Positions 54,299-63,539 of a stretch of 64,000 nt of DNA are shown here, piece by piece. The position numbers and the translations under genes were made by a program. The notes under the pieces were generated by a model that had not been told where the DNA came from, did no database searches, and saw nothing but the letters and a program-made list of their open reading frames with translations. Numbering within the stretch: position 1 is the stretch's first letter; each line of letters begins with the position of its first letter. Location: contig JAEEIU010000001.1 of NCBI GenBank assembly GCA_016281495.1, positions 1 to 64,000 of the forward strand. The letters are read 5' to 3'. This DNA is from Treponema sp. (lineage in GTDB: Bacteria; Spirochaetota; Spirochaetia; Treponematales; Treponemataceae).

Positions 54299-55786
54299 TC
54301 AAAATGGTAGATTTATGGAAGAAAGCAGAATTGAAGGGGTCAGCGTAAAATCAGGAGTAACTTTCCGTGACGCAAATGCATGAACAAGAGAACCCGTAAT
54401 TGCCGCATTCATGGCACAGTATTTCTGGGCAAGAAGGCCGCATATCAATCCCGCAAGCACGTCTCCGCTTCCACCCTTTGCCAGAGCCGATGTTCCATGC
54501 GGATTAAAGTACATTCTTGTTATGCCAAAAGAATCAGATACACAGATTATGACCGTGGCACCCTTTAAAAGCAGGACCACACCGGGGAAAAGAGAACAGA
54601 ATTTTTGCGCAAGTTCCACACGGTTTTTTACGACCTCCTGAACCTCATGATGCCCCAATCCAACATTTTCCAGAAGCATGGAAAACTCTTTTGGATGAGG
54701 GGTAATCACAGTAGCCGCCCCAGACTTTGACCTTGAATCAAGCAAATCCTTTATCTCTCTGTAATGGCACAAGTCCGCATCCAGAACGCATCCCACATCT
54801 CTATCCTTAAGGTAATCGAATATGCCCTTTATGTCACGTCCACGGCCAAGACCCATGCCGCATGCCACCGCCGTTGTATTCGAGGGGAATTCTGTCGCAC
54901 ACATAAGGTCGCAGGGAACCGTACATCCATCAAGCTTGCATCCGCCAACAGCATCCACCACAGTCGCAAGCCCTGCTCCAATCCTTAGGGAAGCACAGGA
55001 AGCCATAACCGCCGCTCCGCTTTTTTCTCCCGCCACTGTCACCGCATGCCCGAAAGTACCCTTGTTGACATTCTGCTTTTTACGGCACGGCAAATCCATG
55101 TCATTTTCTTCCAGCAACGAAAATTCAATCTGAGAATACTCCTCATATGAATCCTCAAACAGCTTGCGTGGCACACCCAGATCTTCAACTTGAATTTTTC
55201 CACACACATCCTTTGCAAAGTCTGAGTAAAGGCTTATTTTTTGAGCCCCCATGGTCACGGTTAAATCCGCAAGAAAAACGCTTTTTTCAAAATTGCCGTT
55301 TAAATCCAGTCCGCTTGGAATGTCACAGGCAATCCTGAACAAGTCCTTTTCGTTAACAAGATCAACAAGAGAAGAAATGTCCTGAGGCAATTCCCCATGG
55401 AAACCACTTCCAAAAATGCAGTCAACGGCAATTCCATTTTCATCAGCAGAAGAAAGGTATTCCAGGCACGAATCCCCACACACAATCTTTACACCGGCTT
55501 TTAGCGCACGTTCCGCCTGAATGGCGCACAGCTTCGATTTGGGAGGAATGCATTCAAGTACCGTGACGTTCCATATTATCCTACGGGCAAGGGCATAACC
55601 GTCGGCTCCATTGTTTCCACCGCCGCACAAAATGACTATTCCCTTCTTTTCAGACCTTTCAAGGCATTCGGCTACGGCTTTTTCCAATCCTGAGGCCGCA
55701 TTTTCCATCATCAGTTCTTCGCTCAATCCATAGAGTTCCCTGACAGCGGCATCGTGTTTTCTTGTGTCAAAAAAAATCTTCTGCAT
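54299..55786 (-). CDS. nnr: Bifunctional NAD(P)H-hydrate repair enzyme Nnr, 495 aa
   Basis: The N-terminal YjeF_N domain (epimerase) has GGGNNGADGYALARRI, FGSGFHGELP and DIPSGLDLNG. The C-terminal kinase-like domain (ADP-dependent dehydratase) has GHAVTVAGEKSGAAVMASCA, TPHPKEFSMLL and the end signature KGGSGDVLAGLICGLLAQ. It repairs damaged hydrated NADH and NADPH in the cytoplasm. Both sets of motifs are intact and the length is usual. Divergent from the gene at 55838; the two promoters overlap and neither gene has a ribosome site. Confidence 0.93.
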   Translation of the reverse strand: MQKIFFDTRKHDAAVRELYGLSEELMMENAASGLEKAVAECLERSEKKGIVILCGGGNNGADGYALARRIIWNVTVLECIPPKSKLCAIQAERALKAGVKIVCGDSCLEYLSSADENGIAVDCIFGSGFHGELPQDISSLVDLVNEKDLFRIACDIPSGLDLNGNFEKSVFLADLTVTMGAQKISLYSDFAKDVCGKIQVEDLGVPRKLFEDSYEEYSQIEFSLLEENDMDLPCRKKQNVNKGTFGHAVTVAGEKSGAAVMASCASLRIGAGLATVVDAVGGCKLDGCTVPCDLMCATEFPSNTTAVACGMGLGRGRDIKGIFDYLKDRDVGCVLDADLCHYREIKDLLDSRSKSGAATVITPHPKEFSMLLENVGLGHHEVQEVVKNRVELAQKFCSLFPGVVLLLKGATVIICVSDSFGITRMYFNPHGTSALAKGGSGDVLAGLICGLLAQKYCAMNAAITGSLVHAFASRKVTPDFTLTPSILLSSINLPF

Positions 55787-55793
55787 GACATGA

Positions 55794-55829
55794 ATTATAA
55801 TTGTATTTTACAAGAATTTGAAGTATTAT
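55794..55829. promoter_or_regulatory. Overlapping divergent promoters, both probably leaderless
   Basis: For nnr (minus): TTCAAA (55822-55817), 17 nt, TATAAT (55799-55794), 7 nt, ATG 55786. For the plus gene: TTGTAT (55801-55806), 17 nt, TATTAT (55824-55829), 8 nt, ATG 55838. The two share about 22 bp, so only one polymerase could bind at a time. Confidence 0.7.
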
Positions 55830-55837
55830 CTTTTAAT

Positions 55838-56875
55838 ATGGCAAAGGAAAACTTTTTTGGTCGCTTAAGAAAATCATTATCGTCTCCAGCAAAAAAGGCA
55901 TGGCGTTTAACCAAGTCCATTTTAAGCACAGCCCTGATTCTGGCCTGCATGAGTTTTGTCATTTTCCTTTCATGCTCCTTAAGGATTACAGGCAAATTTG
56001 GAATCATCTTTTCTTCAATCATGTGTGCAATACTCGCAATCCCCCTTACTTTAATCTGGGTGCCATACATTTCCCATAACGTCCACACACAGGAAACGGC
56101 AAAGGACGAAAAAATACGCGAACAGAAAAAGGAAATCGACGAGCTCCAGACGCAAAACGAAAAATACAAGGCCGAACAAAAATCATTCAAGGAGAAAATT
56201 CATCTTCTGGAAAACCTTACCTTCAACATAGAGACGTATCAGGACGTATTCAAGATGTGTTTCCGCGAATACAGCCAGAACGCAACCCTAAAGAACCGCG
56301 AACAGTTCAACGAAAGCGACTATACCAACGTCATAAAGAAATGGCTCGACTCTCCATCCAAAAACTACGATGAAATACTTTCCGTAATGGACTGCTGTGT
56401 TCAATATCAGAGGGGCGTGGATTTGCAGAACATCAAGATTGCAAAAATCAACGATACAACGGTCGTCATCACGGGCATTCAACCGGAATACACCACCGAA
56501 CCAAGCTTTAAGTACAAGGATTTCTTTTCCGAAGTGCGCCACGTAAAGCTGGATAAAAATTCAAACATACGCGAGATCCACATAGAAAACGACAGCGAAT
56601 ACCGCACGATTCTTGAACAAAAAAAGGAACAGTACAAGGCCGATTTTGAAGATTCATTCATCAAGGGAAAGACAGTGGATGACGATGCGGCTGAAATCAT
56701 AAAGCGAGCACAGAATTTCATCAGAATCATACTTGAGCCGATTTATCCCAATGTTGAATTTGACGACAGCCGTATTGCAAAAGATGCCCTGCCCCTGCTG
56801 GAATACCTCAAGACGGAAACAGACTTTTACAAGAGCAAGCTTTCGCCAGAGCTTCCACCCCCAGACAAGGAATGA
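55838..56875 (+). CDS. Membrane-anchored coiled-coil protein of unknown function, 345 aa
   Basis: ATG 55838 (MAKENFFGRLRK) is chosen from promoter position; upstream codons of the frame overlap the nnr promoter. Two hydrophobic helices (ILSTALILACMSFVIFLSCS; IGIIFSSIMCAILAIPLTLI-like FGIIFSSIMCAILAIPLTLI) are followed by a coiled coil (EKIREQKKEIDELQTQNEKY) and a C-terminal soluble domain with VVITGIQPEYTTEP. I think of DUF4230-type proteins, without confidence. It overlaps the next gene by ATGA. Confidence 0.7.
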   Translation: MAKENFFGRLRKSLSSPAKKAWRLTKSILSTALILACMSFVIFLSCSLRITGKFGIIFSSIMCAILAIPLTLIWVPYISHNVHTQETAKDEKIREQKKEIDELQTQNEKYKAEQKSFKEKIHLLENLTFNIETYQDVFKMCFREYSQNATLKNREQFNESDYTNVIKKWLDSPSKNYDEILSVMDCCVQYQRGVDLQNIKIAKINDTTVVITGIQPEYTTEPSFKYKDFFSEVRHVKLDKNSNIREIHIENDSEYRTILEQKKEQYKADFEDSFIKGKTVDDDAAEIIKRAQNFIRIILEPIYPNVEFDDSRIAKDALPLLEYLKTETDFYKSKLSPELPPPDKE

Positions 56876-57324
56876 CGGTCACTCAAATGGAAGACGTGTT
56901 TTATTCCGACGGCCTGGATTTTTCATGCAAACAGTGTTCTTTCTGCTGCTGCGGATTTTCCGGTGTAGTCCTGCTTTCTGAACATGACCTTGAACGGCTT
57001 GCACAATGGGCCGACGTTACTGCTGATCAGTTCACCGCGATGTACTGCCGCTGGATGGAAGACGACCAGGGCAAAAAGTACCTGTCGCTGCGTGAAAGGC
57101 AAAACAACGAATGCATTTTCTGGGACAAGGGATGTTCCGCATACGAGGCACGCCCCACCCAATGCAGGACCTACCCATTCTGGACATCAGTTCTAAAAGA
57201 CAGGGAATCATGGCAGAAAGAAAGTCAGGATTGCCCCGGCATCAACTCAGGAATCCACCACAGCAAGGAAGAAATCACGGAACAGTTGGAGCTGTACCAA
57301 TCCCGAAAGCCTATCACAAAATGA
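56872..57324 (+). CDS. YkgJ-family cysteine-cluster protein, 150 aa
   Basis: Zinc- or iron-chelating domain with FSCKQCSFCCCGFSG near the start and CIFWDKGCSAYEARPTQCRT then YPFW in the centre, the family's C-x-x-Y-x-x-R-P-x-x-C-R pattern. Its role is not established; members bind a metal cluster. Start overlaps the stop of the gene upstream (ATGA), so they are co-translated. A later in-frame ATG at 56887 is a possible alternative. Confidence 0.85.
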   Translation: MTVTQMEDVFYSDGLDFSCKQCSFCCCGFSGVVLLSEHDLERLAQWADVTADQFTAMYCRWMEDDQGKKYLSLRERQNNECIFWDKGCSAYEARPTQCRTYPFWTSVLKDRESWQKESQDCPGINSGIHHSKEEITEQLELYQSRKPITK

Positions 57325-57340
57325 ATAAATGTGCTAAAAT
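57313..57340 (+). promoter_or_regulatory. Possible leaderless promoter of pepF
   Basis: ATCACA (57313-57318), 16 nt, TAAAAT (57335-57340), then 8 nt and ATG 57349. It overlaps the end of the YkgJ gene. The -35 is 4 of 6. Confidence 0.45.
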
Positions 57341-57348
57341 ACAGCATT

Positions 57349-59196
57349 ATGGAAAACACAAACAAGATACCGCGCTGGGACGTTTCTTCAATTTATCCCG
57401 GCATTGATTCCGATGAATACAGGCAGGCCTTAAAGGATTATGAGTCTGCGATGGATGACGTTACCTCCCTTTTGGATACCGCCGATTCCCTTACAAAGAC
57501 AGCCAACGACAGTTTTGATTTTGCCACATGGCTTTCCAAATACCTGGAATGCAAGAACAAGGTCCACTATCTTTCAAGGACGCTTCATGCATTTGCATAC
57601 ATACTCTATTCAACTGACACGACAAACACCGCTTACCTGAACAACATTACCGCGGTTGAAAAAATGGGACTCAAGGTTGAACAGCAGGACATCCGATTTT
57701 CACGACTTCTTCTGGCACATCAGACTTCTCTACCCGACTTCTACAAGCGCTTTGCCGATTATTCCGAATACAAATACCTTCTTGAACAGACAATCGAAGA
57801 CACACGCCACCAGATGTCCAGTGCGGAAGAAAACCTTGCATCCGACCTTAACCTTACCGGTGGATCTGCATGGGGAATGCTGCACGAACAGATCATCTCC
57901 AATCTTGCCGACGAAAACGGAAGGACGTTCAACGAATTAAGGAACCTTGCCTACGACCCCGACCCCAAGGTACGCAAAGAGGCATGGAAAAAGGAAAAGG
58001 AACTTCTTGCACAAAACAGAATCCCATTTGCCGCCTCCCTGAACAACCTCAAGGGGCAGACCGTAACGCTTAACCGCCGCAGGAACTATGGCACGGCACT
58101 GGAACGCTCACTTAACGCAAACCGCATGAGCAAAAAGACTCTGGACGCATTGATTGGGGCACTGGAAGATTCACTTCCCATGTGGAGGAAATACTTTAAC
58201 GCAAAGGCCTCATACCTAAGGAAACATTCCCTGACTGCAAGCGAAACAGCCGGAACAGACAAAGACCCGGGTCTTGCATTTTACGACCTCTTTGCCCCGC
58301 TTTCCGCCAGTTCAGACGCTTCAGGAGAATCTCTTCTTGAAAAGAAATGGAGCTTTGAACAGGCACGCGACTATGTCCTTTCCGAATACAAATCATTCAG
58401 CGACGACATGTACGAGTTTGCAAAAAATGCCTTTGACAACAAGTGGATTGATGCCGAAGTTCGTGCGGGAAAAGTTGGAGGAGCCTATGACGAAGACTTT
58501 CCCAAGGGACACCAGAGCCGAATCCTTTCCAATTTTACAGGTGCCTTCAGTGACATAATCACGCTTGCCCATGAGCTTGGACACGCATACCACTTTAGCT
58601 GCATGAAGGGAAAACCGCCGGTATTCTACGATTACCCGATGACCCTTGCCGAAAGCGCCAGTACCTTTGCCGAAACGATTACAAAGCAGGACATGATTGC
58701 CGCATGTTCAGGAAACGACAGGCTGTGCATTTTGGATCTGGACCTGCAGGATGCAAGCCAGATTTTTGTTGACATCCTTTGCCGCTATTATTTTGAAAAT
58801 GCCGTATTCAACGAAAGGGAAAAATCAGAATTGAATGCCGATGACTTCTGCCGCCTGATGCTGGATGCCCAGGAAAAAACCTATGGCAGCGGTTTGAACG
58901 GTGAACGCCATGAATACATGTGGGCGGTTAAATCACACTATTACAGCCCGGATTTGGACTTCTACAACTTCCCCTATGCCTTTGGTCAGCTGTTCTCTGC
59001 GGCCCTTTACATGAGGTTCAAAAAAGAAGGTTCAGAATTTGCAAAGACATACAGGGAAATCCTGAGCCAGACCGGAAACTTGAGCTGTGAGGAACTTTGT
59101 GCAAAAGCGGGATTTGACATCACGACAAAGGAATTCTGGAAGGGTGGAATGGAACTTTACGAAAAAGAAGTTGAGGCTTTTTGCTCGGAAAAGTAA
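57349..59196 (+). CDS. pepF: Oligoendopeptidase F, M3B metallopeptidase, 615 aa
   Basis: Zinc site HELGHAYHF with the third ligand Glu in TLAESASTFAET, and the N-terminal lid domain with RWDVSSIYPGIDSDEYRQAL. It cleaves short peptides in the cytoplasm. Length is usual for PepF. ATG 57349 gives the expected N terminus (MENTNKIPRWD); no ribosome site precedes it. Other M3 marks: AGKVGGAYDEDFPKGHQSRI and a C-terminal FYNFPYAFGQLFSAALY. Confidence 0.92.
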   Translation: MENTNKIPRWDVSSIYPGIDSDEYRQALKDYESAMDDVTSLLDTADSLTKTANDSFDFATWLSKYLECKNKVHYLSRTLHAFAYILYSTDTTNTAYLNNITAVEKMGLKVEQQDIRFSRLLLAHQTSLPDFYKRFADYSEYKYLLEQTIEDTRHQMSSAEENLASDLNLTGGSAWGMLHEQIISNLADENGRTFNELRNLAYDPDPKVRKEAWKKEKELLAQNRIPFAASLNNLKGQTVTLNRRRNYGTALERSLNANRMSKKTLDALIGALEDSLPMWRKYFNAKASYLRKHSLTASETAGTDKDPGLAFYDLFAPLSASSDASGESLLEKKWSFEQARDYVLSEYKSFSDDMYEFAKNAFDNKWIDAEVRAGKVGGAYDEDFPKGHQSRILSNFTGAFSDIITLAHELGHAYHFSCMKGKPPVFYDYPMTLAESASTFAETITKQDMIAACSGNDRLCILDLDLQDASQIFVDILCRYYFENAVFNEREKSELNADDFCRLMLDAQEKTYGSGLNGERHEYMWAVKSHYYSPDLDFYNFPYAFGQLFSAALYMRFKKEGSEFAKTYREILSQTGNLSCEELCAKAGFDITTKEFWKGGMELYEKEVEAFCSEK

Positions 59197-59200
59197 GGCC

Positions 59201-60304
59201 TTATGCCTTGCCTAAAACAGCACGGTTCCTGCCGGCAGTCTTTGCCTCATAAAGGGCATCGTCAGCAATCTTGATGTAATCTTCAGGGAGATACTCCGGT
59301 AAAACCTTTATTGCCGTATAACCTGCACTCAAAGAAACAAAACCGTTTACACCGCGCACGAATGGAATCTGCAGGTCACGTACCTTCTGAAGCAGTTGTT
59401 CAACCATCTTACCAAATTCCTCTTCCGGAATGTCAGCTCCGATTGCAGTGAATTCCTCTCCACCATAGCGGCAGAAAGTAAGGTTATGCTCACGACCGAA
59501 CTGGCGCATGGCAAGTCCCACGGTTGCAAGACACTCGTCACCATCCTGATGTCCGTATGTATCGTTGAACTGCTTGAAAAAATCGATGTCCATCATGACA
59601 ACGTTCAATATTTCTACAGGCTTATCAAGAAGCTCATCAAGCTTGGAAAAAAGTACGCGTCTGTTGGAAAGCCCCGTAAGCACATCGGTATCACGCTGCT
59701 TGATCAGAATCTTGTCCTTATGGAAACTTTCAAGACGAAGCAAACGGATATAACCGCCAAGGAATGTACCCATAAGTGCAAATACAGTCGTATCAAGAAG
59801 ATCCAGAATCGCAACCGGTCTTGGCTTTAACCAGAAACTCAGGATGACATGAATGACAAAAACAAAAATCGTCTCTATGATTACCCTAAAGCTTTTGTCG
59901 ATGTAAAGGACAGGCAATGCAAGAAGCAGACAAGTAAAGGTCACGGCCTCATGCGGAGAACCGTACGGAGAATAAACACTCAGGAAAATACCCAGAAAAT
60001 AGAAAATCAGGGTACACATGTGAATCAAAAGGGCTGAACGCCTGATTACCCAAGGTTTTTCAGAACGATAGATAAAAAAGAACACTATTGAAATCGCTGA
60101 CTGGAACCAGTAGAACGTAGAGTAAGGCCAGCCGTAATTGAGGAAAATGCCCACGAACCCAAGCACCGCCTGTATCCATCCTAAATGAAGCATCAGGTAG
60201 CGGAACAGACGTATATTGGACAAATGTACTGTCTCAATGTTTTCGTACAGGAGACCTTCTTCAGTATGCGTATCCAGCCATGAAAAAAGATAAGGCAGCT
60301 TCAT
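59201..60304 (-). CDS. Membrane-bound diguanylate cyclase (GGDEF), 367 aa
   Basis: The N-terminal part has about six helices (for example IQAVLGFVGIFLNYGWPYST, FFIYRSEKPW region, LIFYFLGIFLSVYSP). A GGDEF domain follows with RDTDVLTGLSNRRVLFSKLD, VVMMDIDFFKQFNDTYGHQD and the signature YGGEEF. The site is intact, so it should make c-di-GMP under control of the membrane part. It follows the LEA14-like gene by 12 nt on the same strand and converges with pepF with 4 nt between stops. Second cyclase in the window besides 18444-19586. Confidence 0.9.
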   Translation of the reverse strand: MKLPYLFSWLDTHTEEGLLYENIETVHLSNIRLFRYLMLHLGWIQAVLGFVGIFLNYGWPYSTFYWFQSAISIVFFFIYRSEKPWVIRRSALLIHMCTLIFYFLGIFLSVYSPYGSPHEAVTFTCLLLALPVLYIDKSFRVIIETIFVFVIHVILSFWLKPRPVAILDLLDTTVFALMGTFLGGYIRLLRLESFHKDKILIKQRDTDVLTGLSNRRVLFSKLDELLDKPVEILNVVMMDIDFFKQFNDTYGHQDGDECLATVGLAMRQFGREHNLTFCRYGGEEFTAIGADIPEEEFGKMVEQLLQKVRDLQIPFVRGVNGFVSLSAGYTAIKVLPEYLPEDYIKIADDALYEAKTAGRNRAVLGKA

Positions 60305-60316
60305 AATCGAAAAATC

Positions 60317-61324
60317 TTATTGCTTCTTCACGCTCGAAAGAGGGATTTCATAAGAATATGAAAGCGGAATGTTCTTTGCATATTTTGTATCCGGGAATGA
60401 CAGTCCAGTATCCAGCATGAACACCGGATTGCTCCCGCTCTTATTCAACAGCTGGACGATGAATGCTCCGCTCTGAATCGTGTTCAAAGAAACGGTCATG
60501 GGAACGGTTGCGCTCTTGGATGTAATTCCAGTTGCTTTTCCAGAAGGAGACACTTTTGCAAGGGCACCACCGGCAGTTTTAAGCGAACAGTCCTTGATGT
60601 TGAATTCCCAGTCGGCATTTCCCTCGTTGGCAACATTTACGTCAAAGGTAAAATCGATGTTCAGGTCAATTCCATCAAGAATGTCTGTCGTAATCCTGTT
60701 TCCGGAAAGAAGGGTTGTGGCAATCTGTGTTGCCTTTAATATGCCAAGACCGCCGTTAACCAGCTGATCCTTAAGCTCGCTTAATGAAGGCATCTTTACC
60801 GCAACATTTGAAACGGACATCTTTGGCTTGAACACGGGAACATCGAAATCTGCGGCAACCGGAAGATCCAATGTATTTCCCAGATAGTTCAAGGCTGGAA
60901 TATTGCTTACGTCCAGTGTAACAGTACCGTCAACTGCAAATGGCAGGGTCTTTTTTCCTGCTGTGGAACGGGCAAGATTTATTATTGAGGTATAAGGTAC
61001 CTTGAAATTAAAGCTGTTTTTTGTCGTACCCTGGGCCTTTGCCTGAATACCGTTGCTTGTGCTTACGTTTGTGACTTTTGAATTGTCGTATGAGATGTCG
61101 GCATTCAAACCTGCTATGGAAAGGGATACGCCATAAGGATTGCTGATGGCATAGTTGCACTTGAATGTAATTCCTTCTGTATCAAGAGAGTTGATTGAGA
61201 TGCCTTCCATGCTCAAAGACGGGGTTTGCAAAAGGCCTCCCAATGCACCAAGGCTTCCACATGAAAATGTAAGAACAGAAACAGCCAATGCAAAAAGCAC
61301 GGCAAGAACGGAATTTCTTTTCAT
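60317..61324 (-). CDS. LEA14-like (WHy domain) lipoprotein, 335 aa
   Basis: Signal MKRNSVLAVLFALAVSVLTF with lipobox FSC; GGAGGAAATC precedes ATG 61324. Two WHy/LEA14-type immunoglobulin-like domains follow: GISINSLDTEGITFKCNYAI then SNPYGVSLSIAGLNADISYD, and later DINFTFDVNVANEG-like IDLNIDFTFDVNVANEGNAD. Such domains bind surfaces or protect proteins; the role in bacteria is little known. It is encoded just upstream of a membrane diguanylate cyclase. Confidence 0.85.
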   Translation of the reverse strand: MKRNSVLAVLFALAVSVLTFSCGSLGALGGLLQTPSLSMEGISINSLDTEGITFKCNYAISNPYGVSLSIAGLNADISYDNSKVTNVSTSNGIQAKAQGTTKNSFNFKVPYTSIINLARSTAGKKTLPFAVDGTVTLDVSNIPALNYLGNTLDLPVAADFDVPVFKPKMSVSNVAVKMPSLSELKDQLVNGGLGILKATQIATTLLSGNRITTDILDGIDLNIDFTFDVNVANEGNADWEFNIKDCSLKTAGGALAKVSPSGKATGITSKSATVPMTVSLNTIQSGAFIVQLLNKSGSNPVFMLDTGLSFPDTKYAKNIPLSYSYEIPLSSVKKQ

Positions 61325-61383
61325 GATTTCCTCCACATGTTGTTATATTCTACAATATAAGAGTAAGAAATTCTAGTGGACTT

Positions 61384-61410
61384 TTGTTATTTACTGGGAT
61401 ATATTATAAT
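61384..61410 (+). promoter_or_regulatory. Possible promoter of the JetD-like gene
   Basis: TATAAT at 61405-61410 with TTGTTA at 61384-61389, but only 15 nt between. The leader of about 45 nt has ribosome site AGGGTGG before ATG 61463. Confidence 0.35.
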
Positions 61411-61462
61411 TAGTGTAAAAATGGCAATTTTTCGGGGTATCCTGTGGATTTAGGGTGGTTAA

Positions 61463-62590
61463 ATGACTGTTAACGAGATAAAAGAACGTGCGCTTGAGTC
61501 ATACGGAGATTTTCAAAAATACATAATCACGGTTTTGTGCGGAGCCACAAGGGATAAGACCGGAGCCTTTTTCCCCCTGCAGATTACCGGACAGGCCAAC
61601 GGAGACCCGGACATCCTGCGTTATTCCAAGGCAAACACCGGCAGCGGATATTCACTTGATGTAGAAACAATAGTCACACGCAGCAAGGGCCCCCAATCAT
61701 ACATCCGTAAGATCTTTTTTGAGACCGAGGACGACTACCTTTCGTTCATAGACAAGAAAAAAGAGGTTAAAAACCTGCGTACAGCCCTCCTGATGCTCCA
61801 GAAAGATAGCAAGATTACAAAAGACCAGCTAAAGGACTGGGCATTTGAAAACATACCCCACCTGATCCAGGACCACAAGCAGAACGTAAAATTCTGGGGT
61901 GACATAGCAATCAACGCAAAGGAAGACAAAAAACCGGAGCCAGTTGAAGAAAAAAAGGAAAGGGAACCCATTCCAGAGACCAGAGTACGCCTAAAATACC
62001 CCGGACAGGAAAAACCACGCTCATTTTTCATCAGGTTCCGCACGCTTTCCATCGCAAACCCCGCACGCCTTGGTGCCCTTGCCCCGGAAGAAATCGCACT
62101 TACACTGAACGACTTCATTCACCTTGACCAAACCGATTTTTTACGGGACATCACCACCGTCATCATAGTGGACACGGAGGGGGCATACCTAAGCTTCCCA
62201 CGCACGGAAAACTGTCTGTGCATCTTTGGGAACGCCTATACACTCAATGCATTAAAGCTCTGCCAATGGTTCACACTGTACCGGCTGTTCTATTTCGGGA
62301 CAATAAGCGAATTTGGATTTGACATGCTTTCCACATTCAGGATTTCCTACCCCAAGACAGAGCCCCTTTGCATGGACGATGCGACCCTCGTTCACTTTGC
62401 ACAATATCTGGAAAAAGGTACACCTCTAAAAAACAATTCCATCCCCAGAAACCTTACGCAGCAGGAAAAAAACACTTTTGTTGCATTACGCCAAAACCCC
62501 GACAAGAGCCTTTTGAGCCAGGACCGCATTCCACCGGAATACATCCAGAACATAATGCACAACCTGCTGGAAGTTAAGCCTGACGAGTAA
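61463..62590 (+). CDS. Orphan JetD-like protein (Wadjet Toprim family) with degenerate active site, 375 aa
   Basis: The whole length follows the plan of JetD. The N-terminal DUF3322-like part has SLDVETIVTRSKGPQSYIRK and IFFETEDDYLSFIDKKKEV, then LKDWAFENIPHLI. A charged linker (about residues 150-170) follows. The C-terminal DUF2220/Toprim-like part has VIIVDTEGAYLSFP, CIFGNAYTLNALKLCQWF, FYFGTISEFGFDMLSTFR, LCMDDATLVHF and a final RIPPEYIQNIM. In JetD the matching places read IVEN and YWGDIDTHGF; here the acidic D-x-D becomes T-I-S, so nuclease activity is probably lost. No jetA, jetB or jetC is adjacent. Homology is from motif memory only. Confidence 0.7.
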   Translation: MTVNEIKERALESYGDFQKYIITVLCGATRDKTGAFFPLQITGQANGDPDILRYSKANTGSGYSLDVETIVTRSKGPQSYIRKIFFETEDDYLSFIDKKKEVKNLRTALLMLQKDSKITKDQLKDWAFENIPHLIQDHKQNVKFWGDIAINAKEDKKPEPVEEKKEREPIPETRVRLKYPGQEKPRSFFIRFRTLSIANPARLGALAPEEIALTLNDFIHLDQTDFLRDITTVIIVDTEGAYLSFPRTENCLCIFGNAYTLNALKLCQWFTLYRLFYFGTISEFGFDMLSTFRISYPKTEPLCMDDATLVHFAQYLEKGTPLKNNSIPRNLTQQEKNTFVALRQNPDKSLLSQDRIPPEYIQNIMHNLLEVKPDE

Positions 62591-62635
62591 TTGAACCTGA
62601 AAATACCGAAAATCATTGGGCAACGGAAAATTAAG

Positions 62636-62664
62636 TTGACGAAACAAGAGTCCGATTTTATAAT
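62636..62664 (+). promoter_or_regulatory. Promoter of the small lipoprotein gene, probably leaderless
   Basis: TTGACG (62636-62641), 17-nt spacer, TATAAT (62659-62664), then 6 nt and ATG 62671. Confidence 0.75.
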
Positions 62665-62670
62665 GTAGGT

Positions 62671-63054
62671 ATGAAATTCAATTATAAAAGATTTTTCAAA
62701 TATGCAGGTTTAATCCTCATCTGTGCAAGCGCACTTTCCATCTGCTCATGCAAAAAGGAAAACAAGCTTTTGGGCAAATGGACTGCAAGCAATAATGTCT
62801 CAAGCTATGAATTCGAGGATTCGGATTACAAATTGAACATCGACATCATGTTCACGACCATATGCATCAAGGGCACATACCGTCTGGACGGAGAAAAATT
62901 CTACACAACCGCCAAGCAAACCTCATACGATAACGGCCAAAGCTGGGCTAAAAACAAGGGAGAATTGATTCCAAAGGAAGAATACGAAGGAAAGCTCCAG
63001 TTTAACGACGACGGCACAATCACAATCGACGGCCTTGTCTACACCAGATCCTGA
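62671..63054 (+). CDS. Small predicted lipoprotein, lipocalin-like fold possible, 127 aa
   Basis: Signal MKFNYKRFFKYAGLILICAS with lipobox SICSC. The mature part has LLGKWTASNNVSSYEFEDSD, IKGTYRLDGEKFYTT and TITIDGLVYTRS, the strand pattern of small lipocalin-like beta barrels (GxW near the start). Function unknown. The promoter just upstream points to a leaderless message. Its 3' end overlaps the 3' end of nrdG on the other strand by 16 nt. Confidence 0.7.
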   Translation: MKFNYKRFFKYAGLILICASALSICSCKKENKLLGKWTASNNVSSYEFEDSDYKLNIDIMFTTICIKGTYRLDGEKFYTTAKQTSYDNGQSWAKNKGELIPKEEYEGKLQFNDDGTITIDGLVYTRS

Positions 63055-63539
63055 TTTTTAAGATGCCTGATTTTCTGATTTGAGGACCCCCTGAACGTAA
63101 GGTTAAGGTCCTTCAATTCCTGGATAAAGGGACCATCCACCAGCACGTCTATGCACGACAGCATGTCCGCCGTACATTCAATATGCTTTTTTCCATTCTC
63201 CGGCAGAAGATCCTCTTCGTAAAGATATCCTGTATAACACCATATCGTCTTTTTGGGATAAGTTTCCCTGACGCGATGTAAGAACGGAGCCAGGACCCTC
63301 TGATTTTCTTCCTCAAAGGGTTCCCCTCCCAGCACCGTAAGTCCGCTTATGTATTCAGGAGCAAGATACGACAGAATTTCATCCTCCGTATCTTTTGTAA
63401 ACTCCTTACCGAACAGAAAATCCCATGTCTTTGCGTTAAAGCAGCCGGGGCAATGAATCCTGCATCCCGACACAAACAGAGATACTCTTACGCCCTCTCC
63501 ATCCGCTATGTCGGTTTTCTTTATTTCCCCATAATACAT
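63039..63539 (-). CDS. nrdG: Anaerobic ribonucleotide reductase-activating protein NrdG, 166 aa
   Basis: Radical SAM enzyme with iron-sulfur motif GCRIHCPGCF (C-x3-C-x2-C) after RVSLFVS and VLGGEPFEEEN downstream. It uses SAM to make the glycyl radical on NrdD. Length is usual. ATG 63539 lies 27 nt after the nrdD stop, so the two genes are in one operon. Confidence 0.93.
   Translation of the reverse strand: MYYGEIKKTDIADGEGVRVSLFVSGCRIHCPGCFNAKTWDFLFGKEFTKDTEDEILSYLAPEYISGLTVLGGEPFEEENQRVLAPFLHRVRETYPKKTIWCYTGYLYEEDLLPENGKKHIECTADMLSCIDVLVDGPFIQELKDLNLTFRGSSNQKIRHLKNQDLV

What the first reader, a model, noticed from the sequence alone, without database searches (positions are those of the whole stretch)
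61463..62590. Lone JetD-like protein with a degenerate Toprim site
The 375-aa product follows the full JetD plan: DUF3322-like N-terminal part, linker, DUF2220 Toprim-like part. The places that hold catalytic acids in JetD (IVEN; YWGDID) read IVDTE and YFGTIS, and the usual Wadjet partners JetA, JetB and JetC are absent from both sides. It may be a domesticated DNA-topology sensor or a regulator without cleavage activity. A stand-alone, catalytically dead JetD relative has not, to my knowledge, been described.
Basis: partly seen in the sequence, partly recalled or inferred. Interest (0 to 1): 0.8.

Follow-up and report, generated by a model that had tools for sequence, protein, structure and literature searches.

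The report
Cutting-dead orphan JetD in rumen Treponema
A DNA-cutting protein that normally works in a four-part anti-plasmid machine (Wadjet) has, in one lineage of rumen spirochaetes, been kept alone: it has lost its cutting residues, yet it is inherited from parent to offspring and preserved as strictly as a housekeeping gene, so it has probably taken on a new, non-cutting job.

Summary
Window 61463-62590 encodes a 375-aa JetD homologue (Pfam JetD_C E=7e-20; full-length structural match to MksG Z 22.1, JetD Z 19.8). All five acids implicated in JetD/MksG cleavage are replaced (E236->D, D279->T, D281->S, E349->S, E351->D). JetA and JetB are absent genome-wide; the only SbcC-type hit looks like ordinary SbcC. 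It is not unique: a monophyletic clade (support 100/98) of 16 stand-alone JetD-like proteins occurs in the genus, plus a 17th at a contig end. None lies near jetC; the 33 other JetDs of that set with usable flank do. The acids are invariant in intact Wadjet-linked JetDs, but every full-length lone protein has lost at least two, in different combinations per sub-lineage. Its tree agrees with RpoB for the main groups; 12 of 12 sampled genomes of the lineage carry it. dN/dS is 0.07 (0.03-0.05 in the dead Toprim half), like neighbouring housekeeping genes. So it is no decaying remnant but most likely a vertically inherited, cleavage-dead ex-Wadjet subunit repurposed as a single-gene binding protein. 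The new function, probably DNA binding, is inferred and untested. No earlier description was found.

The parts
61463..62590 (+). Stand-alone JetD-like gene, 375 aa
   Evidence: Pfam JetD_C 7.4e-20; PADLOC JetD 1.4e-54; full-length fold match to 8b7f and 7til
61463..61918 (+). N-terminal arm / DUF3322-like part, residues 1-152, with the conserved SKxxxGxGYxL and TRSxG hairpin motifs
   Evidence: alignments A1/A2; AF2 hairpin strands 64-72 and 76-86; DUF3322 only 18.2 bits
61919..62020 (+). Disordered charged linker, residues 153-186, replacing the conserved REIPxxVHTKFIE end of the N-terminal part of Wadjet JetD; about 45 aa shorter than in G009/G140
   Evidence: pLDDT under 50; alignment
62021..62587 (+). 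C-terminal Toprim-like part, residues 187-375
   Evidence: JetD_C match 228-363; Topo VI A Z 13.7, Spo11 Z 10.3
62171..62173 (+). D237 codon: MksG metal ligand E236 replaced by Asp
   Evidence: E236A impairs MksG (PMC10123090)
62300..62302 (+). T280 codon: MksG metal ligand D279 replaced by Thr
   Evidence: D279A impairs MksG (PMC10123090)
62306..62308 (+). S282 codon: second Asp of the DxD pair replaced by Ser
62516..62524 (+). S352-Q353-D354 codons: E-Q-E (MksG E349/E351, proposed alternative nucleophiles) replaced by S-Q-D
   Evidence: residues named in PMC10123090
62237..62239 (+). Y259 codon: Tyr kept at the position of MksG Y258
61377..61405 (+). Candidate promoter (TGGACT-17-TATATT); the block AAATTCTAGTGGACTTTT is identical in three species
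   Evidence: a consensus match only, no more than expected by chance in the scan

Best explanation
The gene descends from the nuclease subunit JetD of a type-I-like Wadjet system. In an ancestor of one lineage of rumen-associated Treponema, JetD was kept after (or separated from) jetABC and became a single-gene chromosomal trait (shown: clade, gene context, absence of partners, vertical pattern). Freed from cutting, each sub-lineage then lost different catalytic acids, while the rest of the protein stayed under strong purifying selection (shown). The protein is therefore most likely a cleavage-dead, Toprim-dimerised protein that binds DNA (or a DNA-bound partner) through the retained arm and Toprim groove without cutting it, acting as a binding or regulatory factor on the chromosome (inferred; neither DNA binding nor dimerisation was tested). 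About 0.9 for 'domesticated, cleavage-dead, functional'; about 0.5 for 'works by binding DNA'.
For: Monophyly of the lone clade: 100/98 with all columns, 100/99 without the catalytic columns. No jetC within 1.5 kb for 16 of 16 lone genes, while the 33 other JetDs of the relatives set with usable flank have it, as do those with flank in the wider phylum sample. Five acids invariant in intact Wadjet-linked JetDs, at least 15 parsimony changes at these positions in the lone clade. dN/dS about 0.03-0.13 in lone pairs against 0.19-0.4 for three Wadjet pairs; window vs G009: JetD-like 0.071, neighbours 0.05-0.125. RpoB tree: carriers form two well-supported groups united in the best tree; 12 of 12 genomes there carry the gene, including G125 whose copy runs off a contig end. 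Lone-invariant basic residues K56, R73, R191, R193, K265, R293 and the TRSxG hairpin are kept. Not found in viral contigs or phages, and only weak partial JetD hits in plasmids.
Against: No direct evidence of DNA binding: several lone proteins are more acidic in the N-terminal half than Wadjet JetDs, and the conserved hinge segment REIPxxVHTKFIE is lost. Neighbouring genes differ between sub-lineages, so no partner is indicated. E239 and E283 are invariant in the lone clade, and a shifted metal site built on them is not excluded. The union of the two carrier groups in the RpoB tree has low support (52/77). Most carrier genomes are draft MAGs.
Confidence: 0.55

Rival explanations
1. A cleavage-dead JetD homologue that works as a protein-protein adaptor, for example on the housekeeping SMC-ScpAB complex or another chromosome factor, with little or no own DNA binding.
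For: JetD in Wadjet docks on JetABC, including the JetB N-terminus (review PMC10586767); net-acidic N-terminal half in several lone proteins; conserved arm motifs could be a docking surface.
Against: Loss of jetABC removes the known docking partners; no evidence for a substitute partner; operon neighbours not conserved.
Confidence: 0.22
2. Still a nuclease: a shifted or reduced active site (E239, E283, D237, D354, Y259) supports slow, autonomous cleavage.
For: MksG alone cuts DNA at high concentration and its Y258 matters (PMC10123090); Y259 is kept; E239 and E283 are invariant in the lone clade.
Against: MksG E236A or D279A alone drastically impairs activity (PMC10123090); both DxD positions are non-acidic here; E239 and E283 are also present in most Wadjet type-I-like JetDs of the same genus, so they are not a compensating gain; sub-lineages lost different acids.
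Confidence: 0.08
3. An antagonist or modulator of Wadjet: a dead JetD that occupies JetABC and blocks cutting, protecting useful plasmids or limiting self-damage.
For: Some carriers (G083, G093, G005) hold a separate Wadjet system; G141 and G195 hold a jetA or jetB gene at another place.
Against: Most carriers, including the window genome, have no jetA or jetB; the complete co-resident Wadjet systems belong to the other, distant JetD type; the gene is vertically inherited and was not found on mobile elements.
Confidence: 0.08
4. A decaying leftover of a lost Wadjet operon.
For: Loss of partners and of catalytic residues is what decay starts with; true remnants with internal stops exist in the phylum (G438, G540).
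Against: Intact frames in all carriers not cut by a contig end; dN/dS 0.07, lowest in the dead Toprim half; 12 of 12 genomes of the lineage keep it.
Confidence: 0.04

Closest known systems
JetD / MksG, nuclease subunit of Wadjet (MksBEFG)
   Same: Same two-part fold over the whole length (Z 22.1 to 8b7f, 19.8 to 7til); JetD_C profile match; Tyr at the MksG Y258 position
   Different: All five catalytic-site acids replaced; no jetABC; hinge segment replaced by a disordered linker; vertically inherited in one lineage
Topoisomerase VI A / Spo11
   Same: Toprim-containing C-terminal half matches (Z 13.7 and 10.3)
   Different: Toprim acids lost; catalytic tyrosine of the 5Y-CAP domain not expected in the JetD line (literature, not tested here)
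MksBEF of P. aeruginosa without JetD (mirror case)
   Same: A Wadjet-derived part reused without the complete system (review PMC10586767)
   Different: There the SMC part was kept and JetD lost; here JetD was kept and the SMC part lost
TldR, nuclease-dead TnpB-derived regulators (general knowledge; cf. PMC13418256)
   Same: A mobile-element nuclease reused without cutting
   Different: Unrelated protein family; RNA-guided; no guide RNA is known or expected here

Membership tests
JetD/MksG sequence and fold family | JetD_C (DUF2220) profile above curated cutoff | tested here: met
   71.5 bits against cutoff 22
JetD/MksG sequence and fold family | DUF3322 N-terminal domain | tested here: inconclusive
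   18.2 bits, below cutoff 22; but the structural match includes residues 1-111 (8q72_M Z 6.4)
JetD/MksG sequence and fold family | Full-length fold similarity to solved JetD/MksG | tested here: met
   8b7f Z 22.1, 7til Z 19.8
Active JetD nuclease | Toprim acids E ... DxD | tested here: not met
   D237, T280, S282
Active JetD nuclease | LEQE glutamates (MksG E349/E351) | tested here: not met
   S352, D354
Active JetD nuclease | Metal-dependent DNA cleavage | not testable with these tools
   needs purified protein
Wadjet system (JetABCD) | jetA, jetB and jetC adjacent to jetD | tested here: not met
   neighbours are LEA_2, lipoprotein and NrdG-like genes
Wadjet system (JetABCD) | JetA (DUF3375) and JetB (DUF4194) anywhere in the genome | tested here: not met
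   no match in G000 up to E=1, positive in controls G001 and G020
Topoisomerase VI A / Spo11 | Catalytic tyrosine in the 5Y-CAP domain | not tested
   only the Toprim-containing half was aligned

The most novel reading that the evidence does not exclude
A Wadjet nuclease subunit has been converted, in one bacterial lineage, into a conserved single-gene, non-cutting chromosome-binding or SMC-accessory protein: the reciprocal of MksBEF, which kept the SMC part and lost JetD.
Probability: 0.45. Interest if true: 0.8.

Novelty: new variant of a known kind. Interest (0 to 1): 0.62.

Why it matters
JetD is regarded as the effector that makes Wadjet dangerous, and nothing I could find describes it without JetABC. 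A lineage that keeps JetD alone, erodes its active site several times over and still preserves the protein as tightly as housekeeping genes shows that JetD has a useful function apart from cutting. It gives a natural separation-of-function series (different acids lost in different sub-lineages) with which the non-catalytic role of JetD, such as DNA binding or bending and partner docking, can be tested directly. It also warns that JetD_C hits can be annotated as Wadjet defence even where no system and no nuclease exist.

Tried and rejected
1) Pseudogene: rejected by dN/dS and intact frames. 2) Acids present in another register: aligned residues checked against MksG and about 90 JetDs; E239 and E283 are near the site but are also present in most type-I-like Wadjet JetDs of the genus, so they are no gained substitute. 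3) Hidden jetABC elsewhere: not found in G000. 4) Carriage by phage or plasmid: no relative in viral contigs or phages, only distant partial JetD hits on plasmids of other phyla. 5) A conserved operon partner: neighbours differ by sub-lineage (M15 peptidase, hybrid histidine kinases, GatB-asparaginase fusion, LEA_2 lipoprotein), so none is common. 6) A first RpoB monophyly test of carriers was rejected (p 4e-6) because G125 was scored as a non-carrier; G125 proved to carry the gene at a contig end, and with it carriers are one side of a branch in the best tree, at low support (52/77). An earlier, thinner RpoB tree had given 84/88. 7) Two literature searches with loose terms gave little of use. 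9) The weak JetD hit in G204 could not be assigned to a real JetD frame and was left out.

Full report
WHAT IS THERE. Window 61463-62590 (+) is an intact 375-codon ORF. Pfam JetD_C matches at 7.4e-20 and DUF3322 only weakly (18.2 bits, cutoff 22); PADLOC's JetD profile PDLC00522 matches at 1.4e-54. An AlphaFold model made from the window protein and 15 relatives (mean pLDDT 79; Toprim half mostly about 90 or more; residues 153-186 disordered) matches C. glutamicum MksG (8b7f, Z 22.1, residues 1-371) and P. aeruginosa JetD (7til, Z 19.8, residues 1-370), then topoisomerase VI A (Z 13.7) and Spo11 (Z 10.3) for the C-terminal half. The large rmsd of the two full-length matches (15.1 and 8.0) probably reflects the hinge between two halves. 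Common descent with JetD is not in doubt.

THE ACTIVE SITE. The MksG paper (PMC10123090) names E236 and D279 as metal ligands (each alanine mutant drastically impaired), Y258 as probably catalytic, and E349/E351 as alternative nucleophiles proposed for JetD. The phmmer alignment and a multiple alignment of about 90 JetDs put these at window D237, T280, Y259, S352 and D354, with S282 at the second Asp of DxD. E, D, D, E, E are invariant in the Wadjet-linked JetDs examined, of both distant types; the one exception is G013, whose C-terminus appears frame-shifted. In the window all five are changed, two of them conservatively (E to D). Loss of metal-dependent cleavage follows from the MksG mutants by homology; it has not been measured.

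IT IS A CLADE, NOT AN ODDITY. A scan of 200 genomes of the genus gave 47 with JetD_C. A tree of 50 JetDs shows a distant JetD type, type-I-like JetDs, and, within the latter, one clade (100/98; 100/99 without the catalytic columns) of 16 proteins. None of these 16 has a jetC homologue within 1.5 kb; 33 others in that set do, and the four exceptions are contig ends, a run-on frame holding jetC and jetD together, or a wrong call. In an even sample of 393 genomes of the phylum, JetDs with enough flank again sit beside jetC; the others are broken genes or at contig ends. The five positions in the lone clade (E236/D279/D281/E349/E351) read D/T/S/S/D in the window group (G000, G009, G140); E/N/S/S/D in G171, G083, G141, G128, G093; E/N/E/E/D in G194; E/D/E/K/E in G195 (partial protein); K/D/D/S/D in G005, G105; N/D/S/P/E in G184, G085; G/D/S/L/E in G182; S at the first in G091, whose sequence ends before the rest. 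Parsimony needs at least 15 changes at these positions, all within the clade. Because one sub-lineage keeps the first Glu and another keeps DxD, the cleavage site seems to have been eroded repeatedly after the gene became solitary.

SELECTION. Pairwise dN/dS of lone genes is about 0.03-0.13, and 0.03-0.05 for the Toprim half in the window group. Between the window genome and G009 the JetD-like gene has dN/dS 0.071, in the range of its seven neighbours (0.05-0.125). Three Wadjet JetD pairs gave 0.19-0.4. Estimates with dS near or above 1 are rough, but the direction is clear: the protein is maintained.

INHERITANCE. The RpoB tree of 50 genomes gives the same groups as the JetD tree: (G195,(G171,G141,G128,G125)) at 100/100 and (G194,((G000,G009),(G105,G091,(G182,G184)))) at 91/79, the inner six at 100/100. 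G125, first scored as lacking the gene, carries its first 174 codons up to a contig end. So all 12 genomes in these two groups carry it, and 16 near relatives outside do not. In the best tree the two groups are sisters, but support is low (52/77), so one origin with vertical descent is favoured and two are not excluded. Gene context is shared within sub-lineages and differs between them. Named copies are from Treponema or Spirochaetaceae MAGs, several of them from rumen. No relatives were found in viral contigs or phages, and only distant partial JetD hits on plasmids.

PARTNERS. In the window genome (98.8% complete) JetA and JetB profiles find nothing up to E=1, while controls G001 and G020 ring; the only SbcC_Walker_B hit is a 958-aa frame with counterparts in the other carriers, as expected of SbcC. 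G083, G093 and G005 also hold a complete Wadjet of the distant type; G141 has a jetA at a contig end and G195 a jetB.

WHAT IT PROBABLY DOES. Kept: the fold, the arm motifs SKxxxGxGYxL and TRSxG (T72, R73, S74, G76 invariant in the lone clade), basic residues K56, R73, R191, R193, K265, R293, and Y277, G279, E335, Q353. Lost: the catalytic acids, nearby glycines, and the REIPxxVHTKFIE segment before the Toprim part. This is the pattern of a protein still holding something but no longer cutting it. Since JetD and MksG act on DNA as Toprim dimers, the best guess is a non-cutting DNA-binding protein; a protein adaptor is the main rival. The acidic N-terminal half of several members argues for caution.

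KNOWN OR NEW. Searches for JetD, DUF2220, MksG and Wadjet with Treponema in open-licence full text found no stand-alone or catalytically dead JetD; one survey of Bacillota mentions strains lacking some jet gene orthologues without examining them (PMC12287153). Subscription papers and preprints were largely out of reach, so the novelty claim is provisional. By descent it is JetD; by function it fails the tests of an active JetD and of a Wadjet system. I file it as a new variant of a known kind.

Noticed in passing
window 54299-59196 against 59201-63539: Compared with G009, genes at 54.3-59.2 kb are 96-99% identical (dS 0.10-0.16), while 59.2-63.5 kb has dS 0.5-1.5: a sharp boundary that suggests recent recombination in one part.
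   Followed up: partly
window 61919-62020: The linker is about 45 aa shorter than in G009 and G140, which carry P/E/Q/K-rich linkers; an in-frame length change of a disordered segment.
   Followed up: partly
L112, L113, L148 (Treponema vincentii OMZ 806): Wadjet loci with unusual order: jetC-jetD-jetA on one strand and jetB upstream on the other strand.
   Followed up: no
L047, L096, L097, L098, L046, L091, L056: Lone JetD genes of two sub-lineages are followed by a gene for an M15 family peptidase, in L047 with overlapping frames.
   Followed up: partly
L058 and L060: Lone JetD of G005 and G105 lies directly behind a row of three hybrid histidine kinase genes in the same direction.
   Followed up: no
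L094, L051, L057: A second, distant Wadjet type (JetA/JetB clusters c2/c3) is common in the genus and co-occurs with the lone JetD in G083, G093 and G005.
   Followed up: partly
L069: The PepF-like gene next to the window locus is split into two frames in G009 (184 and 356 aa).
   Followed up: no
G438:C28 and G540:C1: Broken JetD genes with internal stops in other families of the phylum, showing what real Wadjet remnants look like.
   Followed up: no
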